Below, in pieces: positions 30,090-48,896 of a stretch of DNA of 64,000 bases; positions within the stretch are counted from its first letter, which is position 1; each line of letters starts with the position of its first letter. A model generated the notes under the pieces. It had not been told where the DNA came from. It saw only the letters and a list, made by a program, of their open reading frames with translations, and searched no databases. The translations under genes and the position numbers were made by a program. Source of the stretch: Solen grandis (Eukaryota > Mollusca > Bivalvia > Adapedonta > Solenidae); assembly GCA_021229015.1 (NCBI GenBank), contig CM037790.1:55896361-55960360 (forward strand), given 5' to 3'.

Positions 30090-30098
30090 TAGTTAACC
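30090..30098. repeat. 9-bp target-site duplication, left
   Basis: TAGTTAACC directly before the element terminus AGGTGTGTGAAG. Exact match to 32805-32813. Confidence 0.9.
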
Positions 30099-30757
30099 AG
30101 GTGTGTGAAGTTAGCGCGTAGATCGTAGATCGTAAATCAACACTATAACTAATTTTCTTTGTCGACCTGGGTCGTAGATCGTAGCTCAACCACTCAAATA
30201 AACCAAAATAAATGGTTGAGCTGGGTCGTAGATCGTAGCTCGACCATTCAAATAAACCAAAATAAATGGTTGAGCTGGATCGTAGATCGTAGCTCAACCA
30301 TTGAAAAAGTTCGCGGAATGGTTGAGCTGGGTCGTAGATCGTAGCTCGACCATTGAAAACTTTCATAGAATGGTTGAGCTGGGTCGTAGATCGTAGCCAA
30401 CCATTCAAAAAAAACATTATATATGGTTGAGCTGGTCGTAGATCGTAGCTCAACCATTGAAAACTTCAAGAATGGTTGAGCTGGGTCGTAGATCGTAGCT
30501 CGACCATTGAAAACTTTCATAGAATGGTTGAGCTGGATCGTAGATCGTAGCTCAACCATTGAAAAAGTTCACGGAATGGTTGAGCTGGGTCGTAGATCGA
30601 AGCTCGACCATTGAAATAAACCAAAATAAATGGTTGAGCTGGGTCGTAGATCGTAGCTCAACCATTAAAAAAGCTCGCGGAATGGTTGAGCTGGGTCGTA
30701 GATCGTAGCTCGACCATTGAAAACTTTCATAGAATGGTTGAGCTGGGTCGTAGATCG
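30099..30757. repeat. Left inverted arm, ~11 palindromic modules
   Basis: After a unique ~70-bp terminus, ~52-57-bp modules follow. Each has a 34-bp hairpin, TGGTTGAGCT, a loop of GGGTCGTAGATCGT or a close variant, then AGCTCAACCA. Spacers between hairpins are of few types: AAATAAACCAAAATAA, GAAAAAGTTCGCGG, GAAAACTTTCATAG and one CAAAAAAAACATTATAT. The arm ends abruptly inside a module at TAGATCG. Confidence 0.9.
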
Positions 30758-31687
30758 AAACTTTACCGACGAATGAGATATTCCCGACAAGTACAAAGAT
30801 TTTCGAAGGAAACTCCTTTCCCGACGAAAGCATTTTTTTCCGACAAATGCAATTTTCCCGACGAGTACAATAATCACGACGAAGATAAAAATATTTACAA
30901 AATACAATTTTCACAACTAATACTAAATTTCCGACATATAATTTTTCCCGACGAACAGAAAATTTCCCGACGGAAACTTTTCCGACGAATGATATATTCC
31001 CGACAAGTACAAAGATTTTCGAAAGAAACTCTTTTCCCGACGAAGCATTTTTTCCGACAAATGCAATTTTCCCGACAAAACCCGACAAAATACAATTTTC
31101 ACAACTAATAATAAATTCCCGACATATAATTTTTCCCGACGAACAGAAAATTTCCCGACGGAAACTTTTCCGACGAATGAGATATTCCCGACAAGTACAA
31201 AGATTTTCGAAGGAAACTCTTTTCCCGACGAAAGCATTTTTTTCCGACAAATGCAATTTTCCCGACGAGTACAACAATCCCGACGAAGATAAAAATATTA
31301 ACAAAATACAATTTTCCCAACTTATACTAAATTCCCGACATATAATTTTTCCCGACGAACAGAAAATTTCCCGACGGAAACTTTTCCGACGAATGAGATA
31401 TTCCCGACAAGTACAAAGATTTTCGAAGGAAACTCTTTTCCCGACGAAAGCATTTTTTTCCGACAAATGCAATTTTCCCGACGAGTACAATAATCCCGAC
31501 GAAGATTAAATATTAACAAAATGCAATTTTCACAACTTATACTAAATTCCCGACATATAATTTTTCCCGACGAACAGAAAATTTCCCGACGGAAACTTTT
31601 CCGACGAATGAGATATTACCGACAAGTACAAAGATTTTGGACGGAAACTCTTTTCCCGACGAAAGCATTTTTTTTCCGACAAATGAA
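30758..31687. repeat. Core: 216-bp tandem repeat array
   Basis: Units begin with GAATGAGATATTCCCGACAA at 30771, 30987 (one base missing), 31175, 31391 and 31606, giving spacings of 216, 188, 216 and 215 bp. One unit has a 28-bp deletion and the last is partial. Within each unit the motif TTCCCGACGAA or a variant recurs many times. 216 is a multiple of three and stops are rare, so long frames open by chance on both strands; they are not genes. Confidence 0.9.
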
Positions 31688-32804
31688 TTCCGTGAACTTT
31701 TTCAATGGTTGAGCTACGATCTACGATCCAGCTCAACCATTTATAATGGTTTATTTGAATGGTTGAGCTACGATCTACGACCCAGCTCAACCATTTATTT
31801 TGGTTTATTTGAATTGTTGAGCTACGATCTACGACCCAGCTCGACCATTCTATGAACATTTTCAATGGTCGAGCTACGATCTATGACCCAGCTCGACCAT
31901 TCTATGAACAATTTCAATGGTCGAGCTACGATCTACGACCCAGCTCAACCATTTATTTTGGTTTATTTGAATGGTCGAGCTACTATCTACGACCCAGCTC
32001 AACCATTCTATAAAAGTTTTCAATGGTCGAGCTACGATCTACGACCAGCTCAACCATTTATAATGGTTTATTTGAATGGTTGAGCTACGATCTACGACCC
32101 AGCTCAACCATTCTATGAAAGTTTTCAATGGTCGAGCTACGATCTACGACCAAGCTCAACCATTCCGCGAACTTTTTCAATGGTTGAGCTACGATCTACG
32201 ATCCAGCTCAACCATTTATTTTGGTTTATTTGAATGGCTGAGCTACGATCTACGACCCAGCTCAACCATTTATTTTGGTTTATTCCAATGGTCGAGCTAC
32301 GATCTACGATCCAGCTCAACCATTCCATCAACATTTTCAATGGTTGAGCTACGATCTACGACCCAGCTCAACCATTCTATGAAAGTTTTCAATGGTCGAG
32401 CTACGATCTACGATCCAGCTCAACCATTCCGCGAACTTTTTCAATGGTTGAGCTACGATCTACGATCCAGCTCAACCATTTATAATGGTTTATTTGAATG
32501 GTTGAGCTACGATCTACGACCCAGCTCAACCATTCTATGAAAGTTTTCAATGGTCGAGCTACGATCTACGACCCAGCTCAACCATTCCGCGAACTTTTTC
32601 AATGGTTGAGCTACGATCTACGATCCAGCTCAACCATTTATTTTGGTTTATTTGAATGGTTGAACTTCGATCTACGACCCAGCTCAACCATTTATTTTGG
32701 TTTATTTGAATGGTTGAGCTACGATCTACGACCCAGGTCGACAAAGAAAATTAGTTATAGTGTTGATTTACGATCTACGATCTACGCGCTAACTTCACAC
32801 ACCT
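31688..32804. repeat. Right inverted arm, ~20 palindromic modules
   Basis: Modules are the reverse complement of the left arm's: TGGTTGAGCT, loop ACGATCTACGACCC, AGCTCAACCA, about 53 bp apart. The spacer types are the same, mirrored. Counted from the outer end, spacer order matches the left arm for at least five modules. The arm is about 460 bp longer than the left, so units were gained here or lost on the left. Confidence 0.9.
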
Positions 32805-32813
32805 TAGTTAACC
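32805..32813. repeat. 9-bp target-site duplication, right
   Basis: TAGTTAACC directly after the terminus CTTCACACACCT. Exact match to 30090-30098. Confidence 0.9.
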
Positions 32814-39679: not shown

Positions 39680-41652
39680 TTTTTAGCTCACCTGAGCTCT
39701 TGTGCTCATGGTAAGCTTTTGTGACCGCCTTTTGTCCGTCGTCCGCCGTCAACAATTGCTTAAGAGCACTCTTGAGGCAACAGTTTTGGCCCAATCTTCA
39801 TGAAACTTGGTCAGGATATTTGTCTACATGATATCTCAGATGAGTTCGAAATTGGGTCATGTGTGGTCAAAAACTAGGTCACCAGGTCAAATCTTAGAAA
39901 AAACCATTGTGAACACTCTAGAGGCCACAGTTTTAGCACAATCTTCATTAGATTTGGTCAGGATGTTTGTCTATATAATATTTTGGATGAGTTCAAAAAT
40001 GGGTCATGTTGGATCGAAAACTAGGTCACCAGATCAAATCTTAGAAAAACCTTGTGAACATTCTAGAGGCCACAGAATTTAGCCCAATCTTCATTAAAGT
40101 TGGGTAGGATGTTTGTCTACATGTTATCTTGGATGAGTTCGAGAATGGGTCACGTGGGGTCAAAAACTAGGTCGCCAGGTCAAATCTTAGAAAAACCTTG
40201 TGAACACTCTAGAGGTCATTCTCCAAATGACTGAAATAATGTCGGTGGGACGTTAAACCCATCAAGCAAACAACCAAACAAACTCTAGAGGTCATATTTT
40301 CAGCCTAATCTTCATAAAATTTGGTCACGGTGTTTGTCTGCATTATATTTCGGATGAGTGCAAAAATGGGTCATGTGGGATCAAAAACTAGGTCACCAGG
40401 TCAATCATTAAAAAAACCTTGTGAACATGCTCCAGGCTACATTTTTTGCCTTATCTTCATTAGATTTGGTCAGAATGTTTGTCTACATGATATTTTGGAT
40501 GAGTTCAAAAATAGGTCACGTGGGGTCTTATGCTAGGTCACCAGGTCAAATCTTAGAAAAACAGCAACATTGTGAACACTCTAGTGGCCACAGTTTTAGC
40601 CAAATCTTCATTAAAGTTGGTTAGGATGTTTGTCTACATGATATTTTGGATGAGTTCGAAAAAGGGTCACGTGGGGTCGAAAACTAGGTCACCATATATC
40701 AAATCTTAGAAAAACATTGTGAACACTCTAGAGGCCACAGTTTTAGCTCAATCTTCGTAAAGTTTACTCAGGATGTTTATCTACATTATATTTCGAATGA
40801 ATTCAAAAATGGGTCATGTGGGGTCACCAGGTCAAATAGTAATAAAAAAACTTGTGAACAAGCTAGAGGCCACATCTTTTTTCCAATCTTTATGAAACTT
40901 TGTCAGGAGTTTTGTCTTATGCTATGTCGGATGAGTTTGAAAATGGCTCACGTTGGGTCAAAAACTAGGTTACTAGGTCAAATCTTATAAAATTTTAGAA
41001 AAACCTTGTGAACACTCTAGCCTTAACTTCATAAAATTTGGTCAAGGTGTTTGTCTACATGATATTTCGGATGAGTTCAAAATTGGGTCATGTGGGGTAA
41101 AAACTAGTTCACCAGGTCAAACATTAAAAAAACATTGAGAACATGCTTGAGGCAACAGTTTTGGCCCAATCTTCATGAAAATTGGTCGGGATGTTTGTCT
41201 ACTTGATATCTTGGATGAGTTCGAAATCGGGTCTTGTGGGGTCAAAAACTAGGTCACCAGGTCAAATCTTACAAAAACCTTGTAAACCCTCTAAAGGCCA
41301 CAATTTTAGCCAAACCTTAATGTTACTTGGTTATGATGTTTATCTATATTATATTTCGAATGAGTTCAAAACTGGGCCACATAGGGTCAAAAAGTAGGTC
41401 ACAATGGTAAATTTTAGAACAATCTTGTGAACACTCTAGAGGCCTACATTTTTGTCCCAGTTTTCATTAATCTTGATAAGAATGATGAATGCATGAATTC
41501 CCAGTTGAGTGCAAATTTAGGTTGTATCAAAATCTAGGTCACTTAGTCAAATGCTAGAAAAGCACTTCAGATGCCACATTTTTATTATCATGCCTAACAC
41601 AGCAATCTCACTCAGGTGAGCGACACAGGGCCATATTGGCCCTCTTTTTTTA
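39680..41652. mobile_element. TTAGCTCACCTGAG element with ~145-bp tandem array
   Basis: Begins TTTTTAGCTCACCTGAGC. Near the right end CTCAGGTGAGCGACACAGGG is inverted relative to the left, followed by the palindrome AGGGCCATATTGGCCCT. Between them are about 12 degenerate units of ~145 bp, with landmarks CACAGTTTTAGCCCAATCTT, GGATGTTTGTCTACATGAT, TGGGTCATGTGGGGTCAAAA, ACTAGGTCACCAGGTC and CTTGTGAACACTCTAGAGGC. There is no transposase. A SINE tail has inserted at 40220. This type is very frequent in bivalves (from memory). Confidence 0.75.
40206..40295 (+). mobile_element. 62-bp SINE tail insertion with 14-bp duplication
   Basis: TCTCCAAATGACTGAAATAA through TCGGTGGGACGTTAAACCC and CAAACAACCAAACAA (40220-40281) is the extreme 3' end of the GGGTTTAAC-type SINE. 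ACTCTAGAGGTCAT stands exactly at 40206-40219 and 40282-40295. This is a clean 5'-truncated retroposition event. Confidence 0.85.
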
Positions 41653-45488: not shown

Positions 45489-46215
45489 CTCTTGCGAAAC
45501 ACATAACACTATATAACCTGAATAGCTCTTGCCAACAAATAACCCCCTTTTGCGAGACAAATAACACCATTAAACCTACCCGGCTCTTGCGAGACACATA
45601 ACACCATAAAACCTACCCGGCTTTTGCGAGACAAATAACACCATTAAACCTACCCGGCTCTTGCGAGACACATAACACCATAAAACCGACCCGGCTCTTG
45701 CGAGACACATAACACGATAAAACCAACCCAGCCCTTGCAAGATACATTACACAATAAAACCAGCCCAGCTCTTGCGACATACATAACACCAAATAACTGC
45801 TGAGTTCTTGCGCGACAGATAACACCATAAAACCAACCCAGCTCTTGCGAGATACATAACACCATAAAACCAACCCATCTCTTGCGAGATACATAACACC
45901 ATAAAACCAACCCCCCAGCTCTTGCGAGATACATAACACCATAAAACCGACTCAGCTCTTAAATGCCATATTACTAACAAACCTTTTGCGAGACACAACA
46001 CCAAAAAACAATTTAACTACCAACTCTTACGAGATACAACGCCATAGTAACAGCCCACCTCTTGCGAAGCAAATAACGCAATATTCAGCCGACCCCTTGC
46101 GAGTTTCATATTGCTTTATACCAGCCTATTTCTTACGAAATTGACAAACACATAACACCTTTCTGAACTTTAACAAAAAATTTTGCGAGACACACAACCA
46201 GCCTACCTCGTGCTA
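45489..46215. repeat. ~38-40-bp minisatellite (CTCTTGCGAGA)
   Basis: About 17-18 units of roughly CTCTTGCGAGACACATAACA with CCATAAAACC and AACCCAG. The centre (45590-45960) is most regular; the edges are degenerate. Frames of up to 109 codons open on the minus strand because of the repeat; they are not genes. Confidence 0.85.
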
Positions 46216-47693: not shown

Positions 47694-48779
47694 ATTTATT
47701 ATTTCCACCGACAGCTAATAAAAGACTACAATAAGTGAGTTTACAAATGTCTGTATCCCATCTGTGAAAAATGAGATTTGTATACTTTTAACACTTTGGA
47801 TACATTTGACATATTCGTTGTATCATCATTACATATCAAATGCAAATGAGTCTAAACGCAAAGAACGTTTACACGAGGGAAAAACGCGCTGCTAGTTCAC
47901 GTGTGATAATGGTAATATTATAAAGGGCAGACTATCATAATTTTAGGTCACTATTTTGAACTTTTGAAATGGTCACGAATCCTATTTCTTTGAGTTTACA
48001 TTTATGGAAGAAAACTCAAGAGAGAGAGAGAGATAGAGATGAATACGTTCACATGTATGTTTATATATATATATGTTGTTGAATATTCATCAAAAGCTGA
48101 AGAAATGTGATATCCTGATTCACAGACTGATCAGAAGCCGACAAGTTACATATTAAAATCAAGCACATATGTTTAAGATCCTAGAACAGCAATCTGAGTA
48201 CTCTTTGATTTGACATGGATTACTCAAAGCCGCATTTTTGTGGATACCAATTTGCTAGAATGAGACTCTCCATGCCCACCAGTATAGCGGATACAGGTAT
48301 AGAGATGGAACTTTTTGATTTTACTTACTCTGTCAGTTTGTACTGATTTTGTTGAGCTGATTTATAGGTGCTGACAAACGGTTGAACAGAAATTTTAGTG
48401 TTTACTAAGCTTTGTGAATTTTCAATGTTGTTATATTGTATTTTTCACAAAGAATGATAGCAATTTTATGTTTTATCATTTTGTATACTATATTTTTAAG
48501 ATTATGCCTGTCTATTATGCTATAAATGTCAGATATGGGTGAACATGTTCTTATTATTTCAGAGGTTCTGAAAGGAACGGAAAAAAAGAAAGAAAAAAGA
48601 TTTTCAAATACACGGAGGAATATAAAAAATGGCAAGTGATGGAAATAAAAAAATAAAAATAATAGTGGCCGTGACCATAAGTGATCTGTGCAGAGTAAAG
48701 ACTCAGGAAAATCGTTGAGAATCCAATGGCAAATATGTAAGAAAATTGCTAAAAACTTGTGGAGTTTGATTATCAAATG
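47694..48779. other. No gene recognised
   Basis: Unique sequence with a short (GA)n (48020-48040). The Gypsy relic loses recognisable coding similarity at about 48780; anything further 3' of it is too diverged to call. No LTR is visible. Confidence 0.3.
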
Positions 48780-48896
48780 ACATTTATTAAAATCTGGTGC
48801 TAATAGAACTGGTGCGCTTTTGAGTATGGCTTTTAACTTGTCAAATGCTATTTGACAGTCATGATTCCAAACAAAGGCTTTATCTTTTTTAAGCAA
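48780..48896 (-). pseudogene. RT-RNase H connection fragment
   Basis: LLKKDKAFVWNHDCQIAFD and SAPVLLAPDF form the well-known connection region (FxWxxxCxxAFxxLK...SAPVL). The similarity stops here, and the RNase H catalytic residues are not found. The rest of the 163-codon frame (to 48405) is unrelated. Confidence 0.75.

What the first reader, a model, noticed from the sequence alone, without database searches (positions are those of the whole stretch)
30090..32813. Foldback transposon with exact ends and a perfect 9-bp target duplication
Seen: 20-bp perfectly inverted termini (AGGTGTGTGAAG...), flanked on both sides by TAGTTAACC. The arms are 659 and 1117 bp and consist of palindromic modules; the core is 930 bp. 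Known: Drosophila FB elements have inverted arms made of tandem repeats and 9-bp duplications, and Mutator-type transposases make 9-bp duplications. Inference: a mollusc foldback family, possibly mobilised by a Mutator-like transposase. The combination of hairpin modules and a 216-bp-period core looks undescribed.
Basis: partly seen in the sequence, partly recalled or inferred. Interest (0 to 1): 0.88.

Follow-up and report, generated by a model that had tools for sequence, protein, structure and literature searches.

The report
Foldback transposon family with repeat-built arms
This is one copy of a jumping-DNA family with hundreds of copies in its host genome; it is of a known kind with repetitive, hairpin-forming ends, and may be a shortened version of a 13-kb element whose mobilising enzyme was not found.

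Summary
A 2,706-bp element (30099-32804) is flanked by a perfect 9-bp duplication; it is the only such pair in the window.

The whole genome shows a family: 741 exact 20-bp ends (control 0) and 932 ends within 3 mismatches of a 30-mer (control 0). Of 22 two-ended copies, picked by exact ends, 18 have a perfect 9-bp duplication, 1 a 10-bp one, 3 imperfect ones. Two empty sites carry one target copy.

A 12,963-bp long form has the same ends, a perfect 9-bp duplication, a dispersed 9-10-kb interior and the same TTCCCGACGAA minisatellite before its right arm. The window copy is probably an internal-deletion derivative; a separate element nested in that copy is not excluded.

Modules fold as hairpins, but 486 modules show almost no compensatory change, and the loop region is conserved best: repeated binding sites are favoured.

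Closest kinds: Mutator-type foldback elements (Tm1, Tetris) and Rehavkus. No transposase appeared in the 7.0 of 13.0 kb sampled; an abundant resident MULE makes 8-bp duplications.

Verdict: real; new member of a known kind.

The parts
30090..30098 (.). Left copy of the 9-bp target-site duplication TAGTTAACC
   Evidence: not part of the repeat
30099..30162 (+). Left terminal domain (64 bp, non-modular): AGGTGTGTGAAGTTAGCGCGTAGATCGTAGATCGTAAATC...; the first 22 bp are identical in all 44 ends of the 22 examined copies (which were picked by an exact 20-bp end)
   Evidence: end counts
30163..30757 (+). Left arm: 12 palindromic ~52-54-bp modules, the last cut by the core (12-bp arm, loop GGGTCGTAGATCGT, inverse 12-bp arm, variable 14-18-bp spacer of about four types, sorted by eye)
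30758..31687 (+). Core: about four units of 216 bp built of TTCCCGACGAA-like subrepeats; a related minisatellite lies before the right arm of the 13-kb long form
31688..32740 (-). Right arm: 20 of the same modules in inverted orientation
32741..32804 (-). Right terminal domain, perfect inverted copy of the left one
32805..32813 (.). Right copy of the target-site duplication TAGTTAACC

Best explanation
A non-autonomous foldback element moved by cut-and-paste. A transposase supplied in trans recognises the terminal ~30-64 bp and probably the repeated TCGTAGATCG sites in the arms, cuts both ends and inserts at a 9-bp staggered break. SHOWN: shared exact ends, 9-bp duplications, empty sites, hundreds of ends, module numbers differing between arms and copies, and a 13-kb form with the same ends, a dispersed interior and a related minisatellite before its right arm. 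INFERRED: the window copy arose from such a long form by loss of the 9-10-kb interior; arm lengths change by slippage or unequal exchange; the transposase belongs to the Mutator superfamily and the layout best fits Rehavkus/foldback elements. Which gene encodes it is not known.
For: 741 exact ends, control 0; 932 ends within 3 mismatches of a 30-mer, control 0. Among the 100 listed ends there are 30 facing pairs under 15 kb (median 1,881.5 bp); of neighbouring ends under 15 kb, 29 face each other, 0 point apart, 5 are tandem. 9-bp duplication perfect in 18 of 22 copies, 10-bp in 1, one mismatch in 2, three mismatches in 1; these are 21 of the 22 facing pairs on C1 plus the window. Empty sites: L070 lacks the copy nested in L071 (93% over 429 bp, one target copy), L005 lacks the insertion of L077 (76% over 156 bp, no gap). 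Module-motif counts per arm range from 2 to 25, apart from L071, which holds a nested copy. Long form C2:62848854-62861816 with duplication TCGTCAGTG. Its left interior piece has 12 other full-length copies at 92-98%, 2 partial (97, 99%), 1 split and 2 diverged (84, 78%) among 40 scored of 315 candidates. A second interior piece lies 4.5-5.8 kb away on the same strand at 7 places. The minisatellite before the right arm matches the window core at 89% over 289 and 96-97% over 186 and 108 bases. L071, an independent copy, keeps 323 bp of the long form's last piece at 92%. Positions 16-31 of the module are 97-100% conserved in 486 modules, and a related string lies in the terminal domain.
Against: No transposase with these ends was found. 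Six frames of the sampled 7.0 kb of the 13.0-kb long form hold no Pfam domain, although the same procedure finds MULE and FLYWCH in two control loci, one of them broken. Only one long form was checked for both ends; one other copy of its interior (C1:104261599) has an exact end 3.8 kb away. Seven of the 12 full-length copies of the left interior piece have no listed match of the second piece (that list scored 40 of 1,896 candidates), three further places have the two pieces 9-20 kb apart, and the interior contains common host repeats. Whether the arm/interior junction is shared by other copies was asked but did not complete. I lowered this confidence from 0.72 to 0.68 on adding the nested-element rival.
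Confidence: 0.68

Rival explanations
1. The 13-kb 'long form' is not a parent: its 9-10-kb interior is a separate dispersed element (or several) that inserted into an ordinary foldback copy.
For: L082 is exactly such a case. Seven of 12 full-length copies of the left interior piece lack a listed match of the second piece; host repeats and no long open frame in the interior.
Against: L071 shares 323 bp of the long form's last piece beside the minisatellite; another interior copy lies 3.8 kb from an exact foldback end; two interior pieces keep their spacing at 7 places, though a nested element would do so too.
Confidence: 0.3
2. The element is mobilised by the abundant resident MULE family (489 aa, FLYWCH plus MULE domains), one end of which begins GGTGTG.
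For: GGTGTG at or next to the tip; the MULE family is abundant and its copies are alike.
Against: That family makes 8-bp duplications: 18 of 21 two-ended copies, 3 none, among 23 loci given to the script (L025 and L026 look like one duplicated site). The foldback family makes 9-bp ones. No further similarity seen in the printed ends; the other end of that family begins GGTTTAG.
Confidence: 0.08
3. The hairpins themselves are the functional feature: single-stranded snap-back or extruded cruciforms are recognised, and the modules are kept for their pairing.
For: Strong folding of the arm, z = -9.3; modules with the palindrome in 22 of 22 copies; 85-99% of cells still pair, partly through G-T at pair 7-32.
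Against: In 486 modules only 4 cells over 12 pairs show a compensatory Watson-Crick double change. Double changes clearly exceed expectation at one pair (18 against 3.4, 1 compensatory) and slightly at two (2 against 0.5, 3 against 1.3, none compensatory); the region from loop to start of the 3' arm is conserved best. The terminal domain does not fold better than shuffles.
Confidence: 0.1
4. A foldback derivative of a non-Mutator superfamily (such as the P-superfamily foldback Galileo; that name is recalled).
For: Foldback structure may arise in different lineages (PMC4079207, section 17 read).
Against: 9-bp duplications are near constant here; [quoted passage not shown] Shorter duplications of P and hAT elements are recalled, from no call.
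Confidence: 0.12
5. Not a transposon but a satellite-like array spread by Helentron-type carriers, as for oyster satellites.
For: Core and arms are tandem repeats, and such carriers are reported in oysters (PMC7492417, search listing and start of abstract only).
Against: Exact inverted ends, target duplications and empty sites.
Confidence: 0.02

Closest known systems
Tm1, Mutator/Foldback family of root-knot nematodes (PMC3169594; abstract and passages seen)
   Same: Composite inverted ends with varying numbers of an internal tandem motif; 9-bp duplications; many non-autonomous short forms.
   Different: Tm1 has a transposase-bearing member (Phantom-like MULE) and asymmetric 7-bp terminal motifs; here the ends are symmetric and no transposase was found.
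Rehavkus (PMC6446971, passages and first part of section 6; PMC10218199, passages)
   Same: 9-bp duplication; long element (9.5 kb in Tribolium); short arrays of a 164-bp tandem repeat in the inverted termini; minisatellite before the 3' inverted repeat.
   Different: Rehavkus has a PHD-finger transposase, not found here; listed hosts are arthropods and annelids; no sequence comparison was possible (Repbase not held).
Tetris of Drosophila virilis (PMC4079207; abstract and section 17)
   Same: Foldback element with tandem repeats in the inverted arms, 8-10-bp duplications, no transposase found, provisionally assigned to Mutator.
   Different: Tetris has ~220-bp arm repeats and three structurally complete copies; here ~52-bp palindromic modules and hundreds of ends.
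Drosophila FB / NOF (recalled; not compared here)
   Different: No sequence or protein comparison was made.

Membership tests
Foldback (FB-like) elements | Long inverted arms made of tandem repeats, varying in repeat number between copies | tested here: met
Foldback (FB-like) elements | Precise insertion with target-site duplication | tested here: met
   18 of 22 perfect 9-bp, 1 of 22 10-bp, 3 of 22 imperfect; two empty sites
Mutator superfamily | Target duplication of 8-11 bp (PMC6446971) | tested here: met
Mutator superfamily | DDE transposase of MULE type in an autonomous member with the same ends | tested here: inconclusive
   None in six frames of 7.0 of 13.0 kb of one long form (positive control); the rest unread
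Rehavkus | 9-bp duplication | tested here: met
Rehavkus | Minisatellite just before the 3' inverted repeat | tested here: met
   Core motifs in 21 of 22 copies; long form
Rehavkus | PHD-finger transposase | tested here: inconclusive
   Not in the sampled part; the genome search for PF00628 did not complete (last try)
Rehavkus | Sequence similarity of termini or transposase to a described Rehavkus | not testable with these tools
   Repbase is not held
Resident 489-aa FLYWCH-MULE family | Same ends and same duplication length | tested here: not met
   Ends GGTGTGGTCTCAC... and GGTTTAGTCTCAC..., 8-bp duplications

The most novel reading that the evidence does not exclude
The ~13-kb long form is the parent of a foldback family driven by a transposase that no current Pfam model recognises: either a Rehavkus lineage in a host group where it has not been reported, or a new relative in which a repeated TCGTAGATCG array acts as a titratable binding platform. 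(Lowered from 0.2 when the nested-element rival was added.)
Probability: 0.17. Interest if true: 0.6.

Novelty: new member of a known kind. Interest (0 to 1): 0.42.

Why it matters
Foldback elements are often known only as short copies without a parent, as for Tetris. Here one genome holds hundreds of copies, variants with other interiors (L070, L071) and a 13-kb form with the same ends, so the route from a long transposon to foldback derivatives may be readable. The layout links the foldback and Rehavkus designs, and the module data bear on two ideas that are easily mixed: hairpin function versus repeated protein-binding sites.

Tried and rejected
Searches without result: the module 24-mer and 18-mer in viral contigs, a 21-mer in genome contigs, blastn against plasmids and phages, relatives of P0004 in viral and genome contigs. 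The protein search with the core (a frame that also covers ~200 bp of the left arm) found only P0001 at the threshold. The 7.8-kb copy L082 was first taken for an autonomous candidate; it is a ~1.24-kb foldback copy with another 6.56-kb element nested in its right end, 6-bp duplication GATCTA. Frames of the long form and of part of the L071 interior gave no Pfam domain. Three tests are missing because the machine did not complete: PHD fingers in the genome, a peptide of the long-form interior, and the arm/interior junction. Literature on this element or a bivalve foldback family: one search found no paper, and none of the titles and abstract starts listed describes it; searches list 8 papers that name Rehavkus. 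Only open-licence papers are held there and Repbase is not.

Full report
1. The observation. The element lies at 30099-32804 (2,706 bp) between two perfect copies of TAGTTAACC. The inverted termini match perfectly for 94 bp, with 4 mismatches in 299 positions, so the reported 20 bp understates them. Arms of 659 and 1117 bp, the core of 930 bp and the 216-bp core period are as reported. A scan for exact 14-bp inverted ends within 8 kb flanked by an exact 7-11-bp direct repeat gives this pair alone in 64 kb.

2. Anatomy. Each end has a 64-bp non-modular terminal domain. Inside it lie ~52-54-bp modules: a 12-bp arm (AATGGTTGAGCT), a loop (GGGTCGTAGATCGT), the inverse arm, then a spacer of 14-18 bp in about four types, sorted by eye; 12 modules left and 20 right. 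Consecutive 12-bp arms alternate in orientation, so an arm can pair with either neighbour. A 292-base stretch of the left arm folds at -61.7 kcal/mol against a mean of -27.2 for shuffles, z = -9.3. The core is a minisatellite of TTCCCGACGAA-like units.

3. The family in its own genome (1.32 Gb, 811 contigs; unnamed). With window bases 30090-30300 as query there were 1,358 first-look candidates and 40 were scored. They give 40 end matches at 98-100%, 24 of them starting exactly at the element's first base, and 23 further partial matches at 78-96% that fall on neighbouring modules. Exact 20-mer ends: 365 forward and 376 reverse, reversed-pattern control 0. 30-mer ends with up to 3 mismatches: 466 and 466, control 0. 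Of the 100 ends listed, 60 form 30 facing pairs below 15 kb and 40 stay unpaired at exact match; neighbouring ends below 15 kb are 29 facing, 0 pointing apart, 5 tandem. Of nine unpaired ends looked at within 1.5 kb, two show a mutated partner (L041 with its 9-bp duplication in place; L063), L054 a weak candidate, and six none in that stretch.

4. Target duplications. I examined 22 two-ended copies: 21 of the 22 facing pairs on C1 (one of them nested in another) and the window; they were chosen for exact 20-bp ends. 18 have a perfect 9-bp duplication, one a perfect 10-bp, two a 9-bp with one mismatch, one a 9-bp with three mismatches. The sites differ, with A+T favoured in the middle (18 sites). 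Two empty sites were found. The copy nested in L071 interrupts sequence that L070 carries uninterrupted (93% over 429 bp, one target copy with small differences). The site of L077 lies in a dispersed repeat that L005 carries uninterrupted (76% over 156 bp, no gap; the target itself differs at 4 of 9 bases). The duplication is therefore a target, not part of the repeat.

5. Length variation. Copies range from 1,159 to 7,937 bp. Module-motif counts differ between the two arms of one element, and 21 of 22 copies hold core motifs; L083 has none. The two longest pairs on C1 contain nested elements. L071 holds another copy of the family with its own duplication. L082 holds a different 6.56-kb element that leaves only the last 33 bp of the right end, with 6-bp duplication GATCTA.

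6. The long form. The pair C2:62848854-62861816 (12,963 bp) is flanked by TCGTCAGTG on both sides. I read 7.0 kb of it in pieces. Module sequence is present up to about 1.8 kb from the left end (the stretch before it is unread). The piece at 62859900-62860900 is the TTCCCGACGAA minisatellite with its approach: 12 motif copies in one orientation, similar to the window core at 89% over 289 and 96-97% over 186 and 108 bases; the four other interior pieces have no motif. The interior is dispersed. Its left piece has 12 other full-length copies at 92-98%, 2 partial ones at 97 and 99%, 1 split one and 2 diverged full-length ones at 84 and 78% (40 of 315 candidates scored). The piece L094 has further long matches (40 of 1,896 scored). 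At seven places both pieces lie on one strand 4.5-5.8 kb apart, against 5.1 kb in this copy; at three more they lie about 9, 12 and 20 kb apart; seven of the 12 full-length copies show no listed match of the second piece (compared by eye). One copy of the second piece (C1:104261599) ends 3.8 kb from an exact foldback end. L071 keeps 323 bp of the long form's last piece at 92%. I read the short copies, including the window's, as internal-deletion derivatives that kept arms and minisatellite. The alternative, a separate element nested in one foldback copy as in L082, is not excluded; the junction search that would decide did not complete.

7. Search for the transposase. The six frames of the five sampled pieces, stops read as X, hold no Pfam domain at E 0.1. 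The same procedure recovers MULE and FLYWCH domains in two control loci. The genome has many MULE copies: 150 scored of 822 candidates. None of the 37 listed on C1 and on C2 up to 45.4 Mb lies within 50 kb of a listed foldback end. The 489-aa family has ends GGTGTGGTCTCAC and GGTTTAGTCTCAC and 8-bp duplications in 18 of 21 two-ended copies among 23 loci given to the script; 3 of 21 have none. A second family can be read as 8 or 9 bp in its one informative copy (L012) and shows none in L015; a third (L089, 469 aa, FLYWCH plus MULE) has a right end GGTGTCTTCCC and no left end found. One end of each shares GGTGT, GGTGTG or GGTGTGT with the foldback tip. The constant 9-bp duplication speaks against the 489-aa family as the driver.

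8. Hairpin or binding site? In 486 ungapped modules (146 distinct) from 22 copies, positions 16-31, most of the loop and the start of the 3' arm, are 97-100% conserved; five positions of the 5' arm fall to 85-89%, loop position 15 to 55% and position 32 of the 3' arm to 64%. Compensatory Watson-Crick double changes number 4 in all. Double changes exceed expectation clearly at one pair (18 against 3.4, of which 1 restores pairing) and slightly at two others, where none does. The common change at position 32 keeps a G-T pair. The set was collected by similarity to a consensus (up to 8 differences), which limits variation. I take the modules to be repeated binding sites whose palindrome is inherited; a function of the hairpin is not excluded.

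9. Relatives elsewhere. Translations of the arm find 13 proteins among 451 candidates, and from one of them 21 among 655, itself included. The six that I printed read, by eye, the same ~53-base module in its three frames; all the proteins found lie in short unnamed contigs (506 to 4,373 bases). Organisms are unknown. Plasmids, phages, viral and prokaryote contigs gave nothing.

10. Comparison. Tm1 of root-knot nematodes has composite inverted repeats with variable tandem motifs and 9-bp duplications and is tied to a Phantom-type MULE transposase (PMC3169594, abstract and passages). Tetris has tandem repeats in foldback arms, 8-10-bp duplications and no known transposase (PMC4079207, abstract and section 17). 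Rehavkus has 9-bp duplications, a PHD-finger transposase and a minisatellite before the 3' inverted repeat, hosts arthropods and annelids (PMC6446971, passages and part of section 6); Rehavkus-1_TC is 9.5 kb long with arrays of a 164-bp repeat in its inverted termini (PMC10218199, passages). The present family works like these. It meets the foldback tests and the duplication tests of Mutator and Rehavkus; the transposase test is open. It is filed as foldback, Mutator-like by inference, Rehavkus-like in layout.

11. Verdict. Real and well bounded; ordinary in kind but rich in material.

Noticed in passing
L082:2229-8788 (inside the foldback copy C1:53041217-53049020): A 6.56-kb element with inverted ends AGTAGTATAGGCATCTC, 6-bp duplication GATCTA, and open frames including one with a P-loop-like stretch (by eye; no Pfam match) and one with a weak C2H2 zinc finger below Pfam's cut-off; it resembles Polinton-like or virus-derived elements (recalled). 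Described only.
   Followed up: partly
window 39767-41453: Two tandem arrays of a ~145-bp unit beginning CACTCTAGAGGCCACA; of a type I recall from mollusc genomes (recall, no call).
   Followed up: no
window 45550-45960: Tandem array of a 37-bp unit, 11 copies.
   Followed up: no
window 48405-48896 (-): Remnant of a retroelement: weak RT_RNaseH_2 match, E 5.6e-5, below Pfam's cut-off.
   Followed up: partly
own genome: Two MULE families with many copies (489 aa and ~470 aa, both with FLYWCH plus MULE domains); dozens of hits have identical scores, which suggests recent expansion. The 489-aa family makes 8-bp duplications.
   Followed up: partly
L063 and L085: Two foldback copies lie in related inverted-repeat sequence with similar targets (AAAATTTTC and GAAATTTTC); possible target preference for palindromic A+T-rich sites.
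   Followed up: no
L094 (C2:62855800-62857300), positions 995-1346: The long-form interior contains a piece of another tandem repeat that forms arrays at many places in the genome (period about 139 bp judged from match spacing).
   Followed up: no
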